Below the pieces are notes generated by a model that worked only from the letters and a program-made list of their open reading frames with translations, was not told where the DNA came from and did no database searches. Made by a program: the position numbers and the translations under genes. This document shows positions 1,936 through 33,224 of a DNA stretch of 33,224 nucleotides, piece by piece. Numbering within the stretch: the first letter of the stretch is position 1; each line of letters opens with the position of its first letter. Origin of the DNA: a virus; the IMG/VR virus record IMGVR_UViG_3300013285_000046, positions 1 to 33,224 of that record; one strand, 5' to 3'.

Positions 1936-3696
1936 ATGAAGTTTGATCTGCGGAAGTTTTATCGGTTTTGTTCTGAGCTTCAGATTGAGACCAAGGAGCA
2001 AGGTCTAAAGAAGCTTGGCACATTGCTTGGCACTCAGCGTTACGTGATGGAGGAGATGCAGCGTGGGCTGGAGGATGGTGCGCATCATTTTGTGATTCTC
2101 AAGGGTCGGCAGTTGGGGATTACGACGATAAGTTTGGCTCTGGACTTGTATTGGGTGTTTACTCATCCTGGCTTGGGCGCGACGTTGGTGACTGATACCG
2201 AGGAAAACCGGGAGATGTTCCGGAGCACTTTGGGCATGTATCACGAGCATTTGCCGCGTGAATGGAAGATGCCGGTTGATAGTCACAATCGGAACCAGAT
2301 GGTTCTGAAGAACCGTAGCCGGCTGTTTTATCAGGTTGCTGGTGTGCGGGCGAAGGGGACTTTGGGGCGCGGCAAGGCAATTACTTATTTGCACGGCACG
2401 GAGACAAGTTCATGGGGCGATGAAGAAGGTTTGGCGTCACTGCTTGCTTCGTTGGCAGAAACCAACTCTGACAGGTTGTATATGTTTGAGAGCACGGCGC
2501 GAGGCTTCAACATGTTCCATGATATGTATGTCACGGCCAAAAGGGCCAAGACGCAGCGCGCTATATTCTGCGGTTGGTGGCGGAACGAGTTCTACTCGAT
2601 TGACCCGGAGTCTCAGGTCTACAAGGTTTACTGGGATGGACGATTGACGGGCGAGGAGAAAGAGTGGACCCGCGACATTAAGAAGCTGTATGGGGTTGAG
2701 ATCAATTCCCGGCAGATGGCTTGGTGGCGGTGGAAGCTGGCGGAGGGCATCCGCGACGAGTCTCTGATGTATCAGGAGTTCCCGCCGACTGAGGACTATG
2801 CGTTTGTAATGACGGGCAGTTCTTTCTTTTCAAACGCTCGCTGCACGGATGCGATGAAGGACGCGAAGAAGCTGGTGCCCGAGGTCTATCGCTATGTGAT
2901 GGGCGCGCACTTTGCTGATACCGAGGTAATTCGGTCGACTGAGAAGTTGGCCACTCTTAGGATATGGGAACAGCCGATAGACACGGCTTACTACGTTATT
3001 GGGGCGGATCCGGCGTATGGGTCGAGCGATTGGGCGGATAGGTTTTGCATCAGCGTTTGGCGGTGTTATTCTGACGGCATGGAGCAGGTTGCGGAGTTTG
3101 CAACCAGTGAGTTGAATACCTACCAGTTTGCTTGGGCGATTAGCCACCTTGCCGGAGCGTATAGGAACTCGACGCTGAATCTGGAAGTGAATGGTCCAGG
3201 GCAGGCGGTGATTAACGAGTTGAGGAACTTGCGGAGACAGGCGGTTAGCGCGGGCGGGCAGCACGGCAAAGACTTGATGGATGTGCTCGGTCACATGACC
3301 AACTACCTCTGGCGGAAGAATGATTCGATGGGCGGCCCCAGCAACGCGATAGGTTGGGTGACGACGGTATCTTCCAAAGAGCGGATGATGGCCTACCTCA
3401 AGGATTACTTCGAGCGCGGGATGATGAAGATTTGCAGCCAGGATTTGATTGAGGAGATGAAGACCATTCGGCGCGATGGCGGGTCTATTGAGGCTGGCGG
3501 GCGCGGAAAGGATGATAGGGTTATTGGTGCGGCTTTGGCGGCGGCGGCTTATGCTGAACAGGTTCAGCCTCGCTTGATAGCGATGAAACTGAGCCGGGCA
3601 GTAAGCAAGGCGCAGGAGAGCAGCACCCCTGAACAGTTGAGTGTTGGCAAGAATGTGTCGGATTATCTCAAGAAGATCGGAATGTATGGCACCTAA
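1936..3696 (+). CDS. terL: terminase large subunit
   Basis: ATPase and nuclease that packages DNA into the prohead (586 aa, normal family length). The Walker A-like loop is at residues 56-64 (KGRQLGITT), the Walker B region at 149-156 (ITYLHGTE), and the coupling motif ESTARG at 185-190. The RNase-H-like nuclease carries acidic residues at D358 (VIGADPAYG), E417 (LNLEVNG) and D526/D527 (GKDDRVIGAAL). The Shine-Dalgarno is weak and lies 21 bases after the previous stop, so coupling is likely. It ends in TAATG with the next gene. Confidence 0.95.
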   Translation: MKFDLRKFYRFCSELQIETKEQGLKKLGTLLGTQRYVMEEMQRGLEDGAHHFVILKGRQLGITTISLALDLYWVFTHPGLGATLVTDTEENREMFRSTLGMYHEHLPREWKMPVDSHNRNQMVLKNRSRLFYQVAGVRAKGTLGRGKAITYLHGTETSSWGDEEGLASLLASLAETNSDRLYMFESTARGFNMFHDMYVTAKRAKTQRAIFCGWWRNEFYSIDPESQVYKVYWDGRLTGEEKEWTRDIKKLYGVEINSRQMAWWRWKLAEGIRDESLMYQEFPPTEDYAFVMTGSSFFSNARCTDAMKDAKKLVPEVYRYVMGAHFADTEVIRSTEKLATLRIWEQPIDTAYYVIGADPAYGSSDWADRFCISVWRCYSDGMEQVAEFATSELNTYQFAWAISHLAGAYRNSTLNLEVNGPGQAVINELRNLRRQAVSAGGQHGKDLMDVLGHMTNYLWRKNDSMGGPSNAIGWVTTVSSKERMMAYLKDYFERGMMKICSQDLIEEMKTIRRDGGSIEAGGRGKDDRVIGAALAAAAYAEQVQPRLIAMKLSRAVSKAQESSTPEQLSVGKNVSDYLKKIGMYGT

Positions 3697-4109
3697 TGAG
3701 CGTTCTTCCTAGAAAAGAGTTACTGGCGCGGATGGACAGGTTTGTCGCTGATAAAAAGCGCGGCATCCCATTGACGCTGTTTGCCGAGGTCGCCGGCATT
3801 ACGTATGCGCTGTTTAGGAAGAACTTCACTGAAAAGACGATGACCATGTCTGAAACAACGCAAATCCGGGTTAGCCGCGCCTTGCAGCAGTGGGAGGACG
3901 GTGAGATTGCGGTGATGCAGGGTATGTATAATACCAAGTTCACTGAGTATCGCCGGGTTGCTAAGCCGAGGATGTATCGCCACTTGGGAGTGCAAGTGGT
4001 TGATGGACAGGTGAAAATGGACGTGGGCATCCGCAATAGAGCCGATTACTCGCGGCCAACGTTTGACCAACAACTCAAAAGCGGAAAGGGGACTAACAAT
4101 GGCTATTAA
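3696..4109 (+). CDS. conserved phage protein beside terminase (137 aa)
   Basis: Its ATG overlaps the terL stop (TAATG). Residues 1-75 are helical and suggest an HTH-like fold (LTLFAEVAGITYALFRKNF); the C-terminal part is basic and ends in a flexible polar tail. To my knowledge proteins of this pattern (MxRKELL...GIxLxLFAE...NRADYS) recur next to terminase genes in podoviruses, but no function is established. A packaging accessory or DNA-binding role is inference from position. Confidence 0.8.
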   Translation: MSVLPRKELLARMDRFVADKKRGIPLTLFAEVAGITYALFRKNFTEKTMTMSETTQIRVSRALQQWEDGEIAVMQGMYNTKFTEYRRVAKPRMYRHLGVQVVDGQVKMDVGIRNRADYSRPTFDQQLKSGKGTNNGY

Positions 4110-4569
4110 ACGTGATTACAAATGCGACGCGCACGGCTTCTTTGAGGCGTGGGAACCTGAGTGCCCGTCTGGCTGCACTGAAGGCGTCAATGTCGTATTC
4201 TTGCGCGCCCCAGTTTACTTGTCGGCTAGAACGAAAACGGCTGATAAGGCGCTTAGAGGCATGGCTAAAGAGTTCAACATGACCAACATCAAGAGCACGC
4301 GGGAAGGCGAGAACCAGGGCAACTACATCACGCGGAACAACGCGCCTGCCCCCAAGCAGGAAGAACAGATGCGGGAGGCTCGTCCGGGCGATAATGCGAT
4401 TTGGGGTGGCGGCGCTGGAATCAGCCTGGCGAATGTTATGGGCGGCGGCGCATACAAGTCTGTTAAAGGCGAGTCGGTTAGTGTATTGCCGAGGGACCTG
4501 GGAAACTTGCCGGGGCCGCGGGCTGCTAGTTATACTGCCGACCATGAGGGGTTGAAAATCAAGCCATGA
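4099..4569 (+). CDS. zinc-ribbon-like protein upstream of portal (156 aa)
   Basis: The start is placed at ATG 4099, preceded by AAAGGGG, rather than an earlier in-frame ATG. Residues 9-26 carry C-x2-H ... C-x3-C (C9, H12, C22, C26), which could bind one zinc. The rest is polar with a Gly-rich stretch near residues 105-125. Similar short proteins sit between terminase and portal in other podovirus genomes, with unknown role. Its TGA overlaps the portal ATG (ATGA). Confidence 0.8.
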   Translation: MAIKRDYKCDAHGFFEAWEPECPSGCTEGVNVVFLRAPVYLSARTKTADKALRGMAKEFNMTNIKSTREGENQGNYITRNNAPAPKQEEQMREARPGDNAIWGGGAGISLANVMGGGAYKSVKGESVSVLPRDLGNLPGPRAASYTADHEGLKIKP

Positions 4570-6197
4570 TTATCCCATCCGACGCTGACGAGAGAGAGAT
4601 GTTCTACCTGGACTTGGTGGAAAAGTGCTACGTCTCTCAGGACGAGAGGAAGGGTGATTATGTTTCCCTGCGTAGTTATTTCTTGTTTGGTTCCGGACCG
4701 GAGGAAAGCCCGGCGCACTACAACAAGATTTATCCGCACATTGACCAGCTCGTCGCCTTTCTCTACAGCGCGGATCAGACCCGGTTTTCAATTGCGATGG
4801 GTGCCTCGGTTAAGGAAGCCGAGCATTCCAAAGTCCCGATTCTAACGCAGGCCCTGAACGACGAGTGGTCTAACACCAACGCTGACAACATTTTCAGCAT
4901 GGCCCTAACTTGGTCGCTGGTGTTTGGCTGCACGTTTGTAAAGTTGGTCCGGCGTCCTGGTGGCGTAGCCCCCTACATGGTCGATCCAGGTTCCATGGGC
5001 GTGCTGCGGGAAGATATTCCCTACACCGACCGGCAAGAGGCAGTCTGTCAGACCTATTATATCACGCGCTCGGAGTTGGCGCGGAACCTGTATCGGCATC
5101 CCAACCGCGATAAGCTCATGCGGCGCATTACCGAATCCAAGCACAAGCCGACAGAGATTCCGAATGCGGTCAATCGCATTATCATGTCTCAAAGCAACCC
5201 CACGATCTACGGCAACGTCAACTTGGACTTGTCGGGTGTGAATCGTATGCGGCCAGTGGTTGCCGAAGACACGGTGGAGATGCGGGAGCTTTACGTTTAC
5301 AACGATGAAACCCATGACTATCAGATAGTTACCATTGCCGAACCGGGCGTGGTGATCTTTGATAGGCCGCTATGGGATGAGGACGCGAACAAGGCTGTCT
5401 TCCTCAAGGGGGAGTTGCCGTTCATCCACATCAACCCCAACCCGCAGTATGACTACTATTGGGGCCAATCCGAAGTTTCGCGGCTCGTTTACCTGCAAGA
5501 AATGCGGAATAAGCGGATGAGCGAGATTCTGGACCTGCTTTCCAAGCAAGTGAACCCGCCAACGGCTTTGATGGGCTTTACCGGCATCCTGGACGAGAAA
5601 AACTTCGCGTTGAACCGTGCCGGTGGGTTGATCTCTACCGACATGCCCAACGGGAAGGTTGAAAAGCTCGCTCCCACGATTCCGCAAGACCTCTACAAAG
5701 AAATCACCGAGATTGACGCCATGTTTGCCGAGGCTTCCGGCATTAGCAGCATTCTTGCTGGTCGCGGCGAGTCCGGCGTGCGGTCTTCTGGCCATGCTTC
5801 GCAACTGGCGCGTTTGGGGTCTTCTCGTGCGAAGAAGCGCGCTCTTGTGGCCGAGGATGCCCTTGAAAAGATGGCAACACTTTATCTGCGGCTGAAGCAG
5901 ATAGACGACAACACCGTTTACCAAGACTCCAATGGGATGGAGTTTATCGCGGACCAGTTTACTAAGGATTTTGTGGTCAAAGTTGACGCGCATTCTAACA
6001 GTCCGATTTTTATGGAAGATTTGCGCACTTTGGCGTTTAATCTTTTTAAGGCCGGCGCGATTGATAAAAGCAGCCTGTTGGATATGTTGGAGCCTCCCAT
6101 GAAGCAGATGTTGAAAGACAACCTGAAGAAGATGGAAGCAAAAGCCGCGTCCCAGCCGCCGCACGAAGGCGGCGCTAAACTCAAGCAGGTTAAGTGA
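4566..6197 (+). CDS. portal protein
   Basis: 543 aa, the usual size of a podovirus portal, placed after terminase and before scaffold and coat. The acidic N-terminus with repeated Tyr/Phe, the central wing/stem region and the helical C-terminus (GHASQLARLGSSRAKKR then long helices) fit the portal family. The portal forms the dodecameric ring at the packaging vertex and binds terminase, then the adaptor. The start overlaps the previous stop (ATGA) and the stop overlaps the next start (TGATG). Confidence 0.88.
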   Translation: MIIPSDADEREMFYLDLVEKCYVSQDERKGDYVSLRSYFLFGSGPEESPAHYNKIYPHIDQLVAFLYSADQTRFSIAMGASVKEAEHSKVPILTQALNDEWSNTNADNIFSMALTWSLVFGCTFVKLVRRPGGVAPYMVDPGSMGVLREDIPYTDRQEAVCQTYYITRSELARNLYRHPNRDKLMRRITESKHKPTEIPNAVNRIIMSQSNPTIYGNVNLDLSGVNRMRPVVAEDTVEMRELYVYNDETHDYQIVTIAEPGVVIFDRPLWDEDANKAVFLKGELPFIHINPNPQYDYYWGQSEVSRLVYLQEMRNKRMSEILDLLSKQVNPPTALMGFTGILDEKNFALNRAGGLISTDMPNGKVEKLAPTIPQDLYKEITEIDAMFAEASGISSILAGRGESGVRSSGHASQLARLGSSRAKKRALVAEDALEKMATLYLRLKQIDDNTVYQDSNGMEFIADQFTKDFVVKVDAHSNSPIFMEDLRTLAFNLFKAGAIDKSSLLDMLEPPMKQMLKDNLKKMEAKAASQPPHEGGAKLKQVK

Positions 6198-26758: not shown

Positions 26759-26910
26759 GTCCGTTCCTCCTCCTGTTCGATCTTAACACACGCCTCAACC
26801 GGCAGCCAGACCCATTGCGGGCTGGCCTTGTCGATCCACCGGATGCGGTATTTGCCGTTGAGCACCTGCACCACCCGGACCGCTACGAGGTCGCCGGCAA
26901 AGGCGGTCAC
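26755..26910 (-). CDS. small SH3-like hypothetical protein (51 aa), GTG start
   Basis: A short gene coupled on both sides by GTGA overlaps (26907-26910 and 26755-26758). The product is beta-rich (VAVRVVQVLNGKYRIRWI, WVWLPVEACVKI), like a small barrel, ending in a Glu-rich tail. The tail codons also supply the AGGAGG for the next gene. No family assigned. Confidence 0.75.
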   Translation of the reverse strand: MTAFAGDLVAVRVVQVLNGKYRIRWIDKASPQWVWLPVEACVKIEQEEERT

Positions 26911-27407
26911 GAGGCAACGCCGATATGGGCCATCACACCGCGCAAGCTTTCCGCAAGCGGCGGCGGTTTGTCGTGGTTGCTTTGCGCTTTGACAACGGTT
27001 TCTTTCGTCAGATGCGCAATCATCGACATAGTGGCGATCTCAGCAACAACCTTGCGCTGCACATCGGCGGGCAGATCGTTAGCGCGGTTCAAGCTGTTCG
27101 CCATCGTTTTGGACGCATTGCGCGCGGTGTGGCGCATTTTCCGCCGCGCGTTGCTGCCGATCAGCCCGGTCTCTGTGGCTGCCAGGCGCTTGTATCCGAC
27201 CCGGACGACGTTTCCAAATATCGCGCCGCTGTCGGTGTTGAGCTGGCGCATCGCGGCAAACAGTAGGTAGCGCCGGCGCCGGACATCCGAACCAATCGCG
27301 GCGGAAAGCGTGTCGTATCCAATCACCGAGCCAATGGCGGTTTTGGCCAGCACGGCGGCAAGGGCCGCGATGTCCGATTCGTTGGAGACTGATGAAATGA
27401 AGGGCAT
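26907..27407 (-). CDS. basic helical protein downstream of CAC array A (166 aa)
   Basis: The open frame runs further upstream through the CAC array, but the real start is ATG 27407: AGGA lies 6 bases before it, at the end of the array. Helical and basic, with an Arg cluster (SDVRRRRYLLFAAMRQL; NARRKMRHTARNASKTM), as in nucleic-acid binders; one His-rich end. I do not recognise the family. Its leader carries ten CAC triplets at 5-base spacing, so its translation is probably controlled. Confidence 0.8.
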   Translation of the reverse strand: MPFISSVSNESDIAALAAVLAKTAIGSVIGYDTLSAAIGSDVRRRRYLLFAAMRQLNTDSGAIFGNVVRVGYKRLAATETGLIGSNARRKMRHTARNASKTMANSLNRANDLPADVQRKVVAEIATMSMIAHLTKETVVKAQSNHDKPPPLAESLRGVMAHIGVAS

Positions 27408-27415
27408 GGGGTGTC

Positions 27416-27465
27416 CTGTGCTGTGCTGTGGGGTGCCGTGCTGTGAAGTGACGTGCCGTGCGGTG
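27416..27465 (-). repeat. CAC array A: ten CACNN units before gene 27407
   Basis: On the coding (minus) strand CAC occurs ten times in a row, each separated by exactly two bases; the spacers vary (AG, CG, GG, GT, TT, CC). The last CAC is directly followed by AGGA, the Shine-Dalgarno of the 27407 gene. The 5-base period is not a codon period and the variable spacers exclude a simple recent microsatellite. The layout resembles the triplet arrays bound by TRAP. Confidence 0.85.
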
Positions 27466-27474
27466 CTGTTGCAG

Positions 27475-28077
27475 CTACGCCGCGTTCTTACGGTTATCCG
27501 TCCATTTGATCGCGTCGATCTTGTAGCGTCCGCCGAAACCGCCGCCTTTGTTGCCGGGGCGGTTTTGGCCGATGCCGATAAACATACCGGCGAGGTCAAC
27601 CATTTCGGCGAACACGTCCTTGGTGATGATCGGATCAACAATCATCACGTTGAAATTCGTTACCCAGCCTTGCGGGATGCGCGGAAAACGGCGAGTGACG
27701 CGCTTTCCAGATCCACGCACGCCATCAGCGTTGGCACTGATCGCAATGCAGTTGATGGTTTCCGGGTCGATGTTGAGCGGCAGGTTTCCGTAAAAGATCA
27801 GGCCGGACGCAAACTTGGCGGTCCATGTGGCTTTGCCCTGCCCTGGGATTTGGCGCTTGCTGTATTGCGCGCCGGCGATGATGGACTGGTGAAGCGCCAT
27901 CTGCGGAATAACGACGGTTTTGGTTTTGCCGATCGTATCGACGTGCATTTTGTGCATCCAGGTTCGGATATCGAAATCGTCGTGGTTTTCGCCGGCCAGC
28001 TTCGGCTCGGTGTGCTGGCGGGATTGAAACATGTCGGAAAAGCCGGTGAGGGTGACGTTGGCGATTGAGGCGTTCAT
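27475..28077 (-). CDS. conserved early phage protein between CAC arrays (200 aa)
   Basis: ATG 28077 is 9 bases after an AGGA that directly follows CAC array B. The pattern (SRQHTEPKLAGENHDDFD, MALHQSIIAGAQYSKRQI, GQGKATW, VFAEMVDLAGMFIGIGQNRP, GGGFGGRYKI) recurs in early regions of many phages in my memory, without a defined function. It is mixed alpha/beta with conserved basic and Gly-rich segments; the C-terminal Gly-rich loop recalls RAMP/RRM-fold RNA-binding proteins, which is only a guess. It lies between two arrays and may bind them. Confidence 0.8.
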   Translation of the reverse strand: MNASIANVTLTGFSDMFQSRQHTEPKLAGENHDDFDIRTWMHKMHVDTIGKTKTVVIPQMALHQSIIAGAQYSKRQIPGQGKATWTAKFASGLIFYGNLPLNIDPETINCIAISANADGVRGSGKRVTRRFPRIPQGWVTNFNVMIVDPIITKDVFAEMVDLAGMFIGIGQNRPGNKGGGFGGRYKIDAIKWTDNRKNAA

Positions 28078-28090
28078 GGGGAGTGTTCCT

Positions 28091-28145
28091 GTGCGGTGTG
28101 GTGGCGTGCGGTGGTGTGCAGTGGCGTGCGGTGCGGTGTTGTGGC
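28091..28145 (-). repeat. CAC array B: eleven NNCAC units before gene 28077
   Basis: On the coding strand eleven CAC triplets follow one another at exact 5-base spacing with varying spacers (GC, AA, CG, TG, AC, CA). The last is directly followed by AGGA and then the ATG of 28077. The array is the same in design as array A although the spacer order differs. Eleven is also the number of triplets in classical TRAP sites. Confidence 0.85.
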
Positions 28146-28152
28146 GTTTACC

Positions 28153-28166
28153 CGCCGTTGCCGGCG
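28153..28166 (-). promoter_or_regulatory. GNRA-tetraloop hairpin 5' of array B
   Basis: On the coding strand CGCCG, GCAA, CGGCG: a 5-bp G/C stem capped by a GNRA loop, 7 bases before the first CAC unit. In the trp leader a 5' stem-loop helps TRAP bind its triplets, so a similar helper role is possible. Confidence 0.45.
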
Positions 28167-28187
28167 AATTGCGGTGATTTCGTCCAC

Positions 28188-32864: not shown

Positions 32865-33224
32865 TTGGGCGCAGCTTCAGCATTATAAAGACCGCTCTCC
32901 AATTTGGATAAAGCTGCACCGAAGCCTGCTGATAGACTTCAATTGGGTGCGCTTGCCGGTTGCTAGCAAGGCGCTAGCACCTTGCCTCTGGTTGCTAGCA
33001 AGTGAGTATCAGGACGGCCGAATAGAGGCTTCCCTCGAGGAAGTGTCATGGCGCATCTCTTTGCCTCATGATGTCATCATCGAGGGTCTCAAGGCATTGT
33101 TAGATAACGGTTTCTTCACCGTTGATAGCGTCTTGCTAGCAAGTTGCAAGCATGTTGCTATCCTAGAGAAAGAGAAAGAGAAAGAACTAGAGAAAGAGAA
33201 AGAACTAGAGAAAGAGAAAGAGAA
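32845..33224 (+). CDS. replication initiator-like protein, 5' part (truncated)
   Basis: ATG 32845 runs to the window end (126 complete codons). The N-terminal domain (NWAQLQHYKDRSPIWIKLHR, FNWVRLPVASKALAP, ASEYQDGRIEA) matches the winged-helix start of phage replication proteins that load the host helicase. From residue 107 it becomes LEKEKE repeats, which end the window. Three TTGCTAGCAA palindromes lie inside the gene. The C-terminal part is probably 1-249. Confidence 0.75.
   Translation, partial: MIIQPTNWAQLQHYKDRSPIWIKLHRSLLIDFNWVRLPVASKALAPCLWLLASEYQDGRIEASLEEVSWRISLPHDVIIEGLKALLDNGFFTVDSVLLASCKHVAILEKEKEKELEKEKELEKEKE
32960..33142. repeat. three TTGCTAGCAA palindromes in the initiator gene
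   Basis: Perfect 10-base palindromes at 32960-32969, 32992-33001 and 33133-33142, plus a partial GCGCTAGCAC at 32971-32980. Copies 2 and 3 share 12 bases (TTGCTAGCAAGT). Copy 1 is read in a different codon frame from copies 2 and 3, so conservation is at DNA level. They are candidate iterons or operator sites. Confidence 0.6.
33163..33224 (+). repeat. CTAGAG(AAAGAG)n low-complexity repeat at window end
   Basis: Hexamers GAGAAA/AAAGAG punctuated by CTAGAG at 33163, 33187 and 33205 give Leu-Glu-Lys-Glu repeats in frame. The unit length varies by whole hexamers, so it keeps the reading frame. Short-read assembly would collapse or stop here, which explains the window end. Confidence 0.85.

What the first reader, a model, noticed from the sequence alone, without database searches (positions are those of the whole stretch)
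27408..28187. Two CAC-triplet arrays: a TRAP-like, undescribed translational control system
Two leaders in one operon carry 10 (27416-27465) and 11 (28091-28145) consecutive CAC triplets on the transcript strand, with exactly 2-base spacers. The spacers vary and CAC does not, so selection acts on the triplet and its spacing. In both leaders the last CAC is directly followed by AGGA and then the start codon, so a protein on the array would block the ribosome site. Bacterial TRAP binds 11 (G/U)AG triplets with 2-3-base spacers around a ring, which is established knowledge; CAC arrays of this type are not known to me. The inference is a phage ring or filament protein that wraps CACNN RNA and represses two early genes.
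Basis: partly seen in the sequence, partly recalled or inferred. Interest (0 to 1): 0.88.

Follow-up and report, generated by a model that had tools for sequence, protein, structure and literature searches.

The report
Phage RNA-guide arrays beside Vipr gene
The two CAC arrays are very probably guide RNAs of VIPR, a recently described phage relative of CRISPR in which the two variable bases after each fixed triplet together spell out a DNA target, usually in a rival virus; they are not a TRAP-like translation switch.

Summary
In detail: exact runs of 11 (28091-28143) and 10 (27418-27465) CACNN pentads lie on the minus strand, each followed by AGGA and a start codon. The TRAP-like reading is not what the evidence supports. 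The gene between the arrays (27475-28077) is a Vipr protein: its family profile hits the solved SUSP1 Vipr chain (E 4.6e-10) and its model matches CRISPR Cas7/Csm3 RAMPs. The next gene (26907-27407) is the accessory gene (vap). Relatives carry both genes with CACNN, CGCNN or CTCNN tracts in front of them. The NN bases change faster than synonymous sites, as guides do. Three guides of a related Paracoccus prophage, read by VIPR's published rule (NN pairs, one target base skipped), hit phage genes: serine integrase twice (one 22/22, about 75 exact copies) and terminase (10/11 NN), with the skip on the wobble base. So this is a VIPR system whose triplet is CNC instead of GGY, with guide tracts inside the mRNA leaders and no structured tail seen. 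VIPR is already described (bioRxiv 2026), so this is a variant of a known kind. No target was found for the window's own guides; the guide strand was not tested. Leader autoregulation remains open.

The parts
28091..28143 (-). guide tract V: 11 CACNN units in the leader of vipr (NN: AA CG CG GC TG AC CG GC CA CG, then AG)
28075..28090 (-). AGGA Shine-Dalgarno directly after tract V, then the ATG of vipr
27475..28077 (-). vipr: 200-aa single-domain RAMP (Cas7-like) with conserved G-rich loop (GMFIGIGQNRPGNKGGGFGGRY)
   Evidence: profile A3 to PDB 36pp_D 'SUSP1 Vipr protein' E=4.6e-10; AlphaFold2 pLDDT 92.9; the 50 best Foldseek PDB hits are Csm or type VII CRISPR effector-complex chains, best E=4e-7; phrog_4652
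27418..27465 (-). guide tract A: 10 CACNN units between vipr and the next gene (NN: CG GG GT TT AG GG CC AG AG, then AG)
27405..27417 (-). AGGA Shine-Dalgarno directly after tract A, then the ATG of vap
26907..27407 (-). vap-like accessory gene: 166 aa, predicted winged-helix N-terminal part plus helical C-terminal part; next to vipr in nearly all relatives
   Evidence: 12 of 75 members weakly match an MGMT-type DNA-binding domain; no significant PDB fold match

Best explanation
This is a phage VIPR system. Vipr (27475-28077), a single-RRM RAMP related to Cas7, coats RNA made of five-base units. The fixed triplet (here CAC) is the protein's register mark. The two variable bases of each unit pair with double-stranded DNA, skipping one target base per unit. 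Each CACNN tract is therefore the guide part of a vrRNA, carried in the 5' leaders of vipr and vap and presumably cut from, or bound within, that transcript. The loaded complex most likely silences genes of competing phages or prophages, helped by the DNA-binding-like Vap. Shown here: arrays, gene identity by profile and fold, linkage, NN hypervariability, and the one-base-skip code in a homologous system. Inferred from homology and the preprint: that the CAC strand is the guide strand, RNA processing, binding and repression by this phage. Unknown: the targets of its two guides.
For: Profile of 53 homologues hits PDB 36pp 'SUSP1 Vipr protein', E 4.6e-10. Predicted fold matches Csm3/Cas7-type RAMPs. 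Vipr-vap pair with pentad tracts in most relatives: lag-5 identity 0.45-0.49 in leaders against 0.24-0.26 in coding DNA; tract end to start codon usually 10-30 nt. NN entropy 3.6-3.9 of 4 bits except in the last three, AA-rich units. NN diverge while genes do not: L105/L102 third codon positions 98% identical, C1/C3 24/25 and middle base 12/12, NN 8/24; L168/L160 97% against NN 4/14. The triplet's middle base (A/G/T) follows the Vipr tree (9 changes for A, 17.3 in shuffles, 0 of 500 as low). L185 Paracoccus guides read with one-base skip: 22/22 match at about 75 places, serine recombinase YKIDR codons; 10-11 of 12 NN in the same gene's YTRKSSEE codons; 10/11 NN in a terminase; skip on the wobble base; 2-skip version of the terminase guide 0 hits; reversed-pattern controls none, or few and weak. 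Code and system: PMC13142463.
Against: No target for the window's own guides: IMG/VR cores extend only at chance; 289 alphaproteobacterial genomes gave no match with fewer than 2 mismatches. The decisive target test used CGCNN guides of a Vipr of about 44% identity, not CACNN; CACNN guides of L184 gave only one ambiguous hit. The triplet is CNC, not the GGY of the preprint's main text. No structured 3' tail was seen after the tracts. Related structural-gene phages MW202825 and MW202753 lack genes and arrays, which fits a mobile module but tells nothing of function.
Confidence: 0.92

Rival explanations
1. TRAP-like translational control: a phage protein wraps the CAC triplets and blocks the adjacent ribosome sites of both genes; the spacers are filler.
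For: Arrays abut AGGA in the window; tracts sit shortly upstream of start codons in most relatives; the array between the genes leaves no room for its own promoter after the vipr stop.
Against: Spacers change faster than synonymous sites, unexpected for filler; guides of a homologous system match phage integrase and terminase genes; Vipr has a RAMP fold. In many relatives 20-60 nt separate tract and start codon.
Confidence: 0.04
2. Double use: the tracts are vrRNA guides and, while still in the mRNA leader, are bound by Vipr, which lowers translation or destabilises the vipr-vap message and so matches protein to guide supply.
For: Tracts lie in leaders of the two genes whose products would use them; AGGA follows the last CAC without a gap in the window; co-directional with the genes.
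Against: Not tested; spacing between tract and start codon varies widely among relatives, so occlusion of the ribosome site cannot be general.
Confidence: 0.25
3. A dsDNA-binding array (omega-repressor-like operator, iteron or partition site) bound by the winged-helix Vap.
For: Vap is predicted winged-helix; direct repeats upstream of genes.
Against: Tract A starts 9 nt after the vipr stop and ends at the Shine-Dalgarno, so it is no promoter operator; hypervariable NN and matching targets; the middle base follows the Vipr tree.
Confidence: 0.03
4. Simple-repeat slippage without function.
For: About 40 of the 90 pattern hits are low-variety repeats, mostly constant-spacer microsatellites.
Against: Window spacers are mixed while CAC is invariant; linked to vipr/vap in 42 of 50 varied loci, 0 of 40 low-variety loci.
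Confidence: 0.005

Closest known systems
VIPR systems (Vipr plus vrRNA; Escherichia phage SUSP1 type II; PMC13142463)
   Same: Single-RRM RAMP of about 200 aa, adjacent accessory gene, tandem five-base units with a fixed triplet and hypervariable NN, 9 or more units, phage-borne, one-base-skip targeting of rival elements with the skip on the codon wobble base (the last shown here in the Paracoccus relative).
   Different: Triplet is CNC (CAC here; CGC or CTC in relatives) instead of GGY; tracts lie inside the mRNA leaders of vipr and vap, next to the ribosome site; no structured 3' tail seen, only AA-rich last units in many relatives. The preprint allows 'a related consensus' in its fig. S17, which could not be read here.
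Class 1 CRISPR Cas7/Csm3 RAMPs
   Same: Predicted fold and G-rich loop; filament on guide RNA with periodic unpaired positions (established knowledge).
   Different: No CRISPR array seen in the window, contiguous spacers replaced by NN pairs, about 10-16% sequence identity in the structure matches.
TRAP (trp RNA-binding attenuation protein)
   Same: Triplets with short spacers repeated about 11 times in a leader.
   Different: TRAP is an 11-subunit ring binding (G/U)AG with informationless spacers; no TRAP homologue was found among the genes scanned; the spacers here carry target information.
Omega repressor heptad arrays (plasmid pSM19035)
   Same: Tandem short direct repeats in front of genes.
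   Different: Omega binds 7-bp duplex repeats in promoters; here 5-nt units lie between a stop codon and a ribosome site.

Membership tests
VIPR | Vipr protein: ancestral single-RRM RAMP with G-loop | tested here: met
   hmmsearch to SUSP1 Vipr chain 36pp_D E=4.6e-10; Foldseek to Cas7/Csm3-type chains
VIPR | adjacent vap accessory gene | tested here: met
   26907-27407 family neighbours vipr in nearly all loci; predicted DNA-binding-like fold
VIPR | tandem five-base repeats, 9-16 units, fixed triplet plus hypervariable NN | tested here: met
   11 and 10 units; NN hypervariable in relatives
VIPR | GGY triplet (main-text consensus) | tested here: not met
   Triplet is CAC; CNC in relatives. The preprint text widens this to 'or a related consensus'
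VIPR | DNA targets matched by NN with one-base skip | tested here: inconclusive
   Met for the homologous Paracoccus system L185; no target found for the window's own guides
VIPR | vrRNA expressed and bound by Vipr | not testable with these tools
   needs small-RNA sequencing and pull-down
VIPR | structured 3' tail (SUSP1 clade) | tested here: not met
   Tracts end 8-11 nt before the start codons, leaving no room for a tail; no Rfam match in the window. The preprint ties the pseudoknotted tail to the SUSP1 clade
TRAP | TRAP protein and (G/U)AG triplets | tested here: not met
   triplet is CAC; the adjacent gene is a RAMP; no TRAP family match among the 10 genes scanned

The most novel reading that the evidence does not exclude
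A CNC-type VIPR in which guide RNAs are built into the leaders of their own effector genes, so that Vipr loading on the leader both produces the guide complex and throttles its own translation; with the triplet's middle base (A, G, T) switching repeatedly among Vipr lineages, giving mutually incompatible codes that could be mapped to protein residues.
Probability: 0.25. Interest if true: 0.8.

Novelty: new variant of a known kind. Interest (0 to 1): 0.62.

Why it matters
It gives independent, sequence-only support for the newly reported noncontiguous guide code in a Vipr clade with another triplet, spread over phages of Alpha- and Gammaproteobacteria, Nitrospirota, Bacteroidota and Cyanobacteriota. 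It names concrete targets (conserved catalytic codons of serine integrases, terminase), which makes the inter-phage warfare model testable. The CAC/CGC/CTC switches supply natural variants to find out how Vipr reads its triplet.

Tried and rejected
Rfam search of the window and 13 loci for ribozymes or known leaders: only tRNAs in L054 and L101. Targets of the window's guides: IMG/VR exact 8-NN cores, a 2-skip control, extension test, 289 alphaproteobacterial genomes, own genome, two structural relatives: nothing above chance. All-against-all guide search among held loci: no excess for any skip. CAC-type guides of a Methylococcaceae MAG: one 19/20 hit in front of a phosphoesterase gene, not clearly phage, left undecided. 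Promoter/terminator scan of the region: nothing above shuffles. TRAP, omega-repressor, iteron and slippage readings rejected as main explanation for the reasons given under rivals. The preprint's supplement (fig. S17, types) could not be opened, so whether CNC/NN is already listed there is unknown.

Full report
Observation. On the minus strand the window holds 11 CACNN units at 28091-28143 and 10 at 27418-27465, with CAC invariant, a strict 5-nt period and mixed spacers; each tract runs into AGGA and a start codon. No other triplet array of comparable order exists in the window apart from a terminal AGA/6 microsatellite. The window is a virus record of 33,224 bases with terminase, portal and major head genes on the plus strand and RecE-like, RecT-like, SSB-like and RusA-like genes on the minus strand.

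Spread. A scan of IMG/VR for nine CACNN units gave 90 loci. Fifty have at least five different spacers; 42 of them encode homologues of one or both genes next to the window's arrays, against none of the 40 loci with low-variety spacers. The arrays were thus found by DNA pattern alone and the genes came with them. A profile search for the first gene gave 80 listed viral loci (263 confirmed) and 17 genome loci; nearly all carry both genes side by side. Many relatives have CGCNN or CTCNN instead of CACNN.

What the genes are. The 200-aa protein has no Pfam family, but its family profile hits PDB chain 36pp_D, 'SUSP1 Vipr protein', at 4.6e-10. Its AlphaFold2 model (pLDDT 92.9) has Csm or type VII CRISPR complex chains as its 50 best PDB fold matches. 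The preprint PMC13142463 describes VIPR: a single-RRM RAMP, an accessory gene, and vrRNAs of alternating GGY/NN motifs whose NN pairs recognise DNA with one skipped target base. The 166-aa neighbour is predicted to be a winged-helix protein with a helical C-terminal part, weakly like MGMT DNA-binding domains, which fits the DNA-binding vap genes of some VIPR types.

Do the spacers behave like guides? Across nonredundant relatives, leader DNA has lag-5 identity of 0.45 (vipr) and 0.49 (vap) against 0.24-0.26 in the genes themselves. NN entropy is 3.6-3.9 of 4 bits, falling only in the last three units, where AA dominates. In close pairs the triplet is kept while NN turn over: L105/L102 have vipr third codon positions 98% identical, C1/C3 24/25 and middle base 12/12, but NN 8/24; L168/L160 97% against NN 4/14. 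Not all pairs do so (L079/L024 and L104/L102 keep their NN), as expected if guides are replaced now and then. Filler spacers would not outrun synonymous sites.

Do they find targets? Paracoccus litorisediminis (L185) carries four CGCNN tracts around its vipr. Read as NNxNNx and searched in 121 Paracoccus genomes, the tract at 3282-3351 matched 22 of 22 bases at about 75 places. Four translated examples (three exact, one with 10 of 11 NN) are all the serine recombinase motif V[DI]VVVVYKIDR read from the other strand. A uniform-base estimate of chance exact matches is about 5e-5 (my arithmetic); the reversed-pattern control gave about ten hits in the 3-mismatch search, against more than 120. The tract at 4558-4642 matched the YTRKSSEEGLE codons of the same kind of gene with 10-11 of 12 NN in 23 genomes, reversed control none; in several genomes the two sites lie about 207 bp apart. 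The tract at 3883-3952 matched a large terminase with 10 of 11 NN in two genomes; its 2-skip version found nothing. In all three the skipped base is the codon wobble position, as the preprint reports for SUSP1. Hits within one gene family are not independent, so the count of copies is not a count of events; the strength lies in the exact match and in three guides all landing in phage or integrase genes. The gene names integrase and terminase are read from the translated sequences, not from a family search.

Limits. The window's own guides have no detectable target, so the claim for this phage rests on homology, anatomy and NN behaviour. Which strand is the guide is inferred from co-direction with the genes; a dsDNA target search cannot tell. 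Two environmental phages with 67-71% identical portal proteins lack vipr, vap and arrays, showing that the module comes and goes as a unit.

Variant features. The triplet is CNC rather than GGY. Its middle base follows the Vipr tree (A needs 9 changes, shuffled mean 17.3, none of 500 as low), with several switches, which suggests that Vipr lineages read their own triplet. The tracts lie in mRNA leaders, abutting the ribosome site in the window, without a structured tail. Whether this gives feedback on vipr and vap translation is open and is the most novel reading left.

Conclusion. It is a CNC-type VIPR system with two guides.

Noticed in passing
L022, L027, L031, L045, L064, L012: In one group of relatives several CACNN tracts stand in a row, punctuated by a repeated CAACAGTTTTCC / CATCCATTTCC element that shifts the 5-nt phase by one base; looks like serial vrRNA units with a common boundary.
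   Followed up: partly
L053:3779-3861 and 4589-4671 (minus), L132: Both tracts are followed by the same hairpin-rich stretch (AACAGGTCCCTCGGACCCTTCCCGGAGTACGACTCCGGG...), a candidate structured tail before the start codon.
   Followed up: no
L017, L054, L144: Tracts contain internal duplications of blocks of units (for example AC GG AA TC CT repeated in the NN order of L054), suggesting growth of guides by block duplication.
   Followed up: no
L063:6521-7447, L055:3905, L041:8573-9148: CACNN tracts also stand upstream of RecT/Bet-like and ParA-like genes, not only vipr and vap.
   Followed up: no
G391:C15 57505 and 57712; G307:C1 2254125 and 2254332: Two guides of one Paracoccus prophage hit two conserved catalytic motifs of the same serine integrase gene about 207 bp apart.
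   Followed up: yes
window 33165-33224: AGAGAA / 18-nt microsatellite at the very end of the record.
   Followed up: no
phage records OQ594955 (4903-5385, LESphi2) and OR003939 (22441-22833): Weak Vipr relatives in deposited phages, annotated hypothetical or HTH regulator.
   Followed up: no
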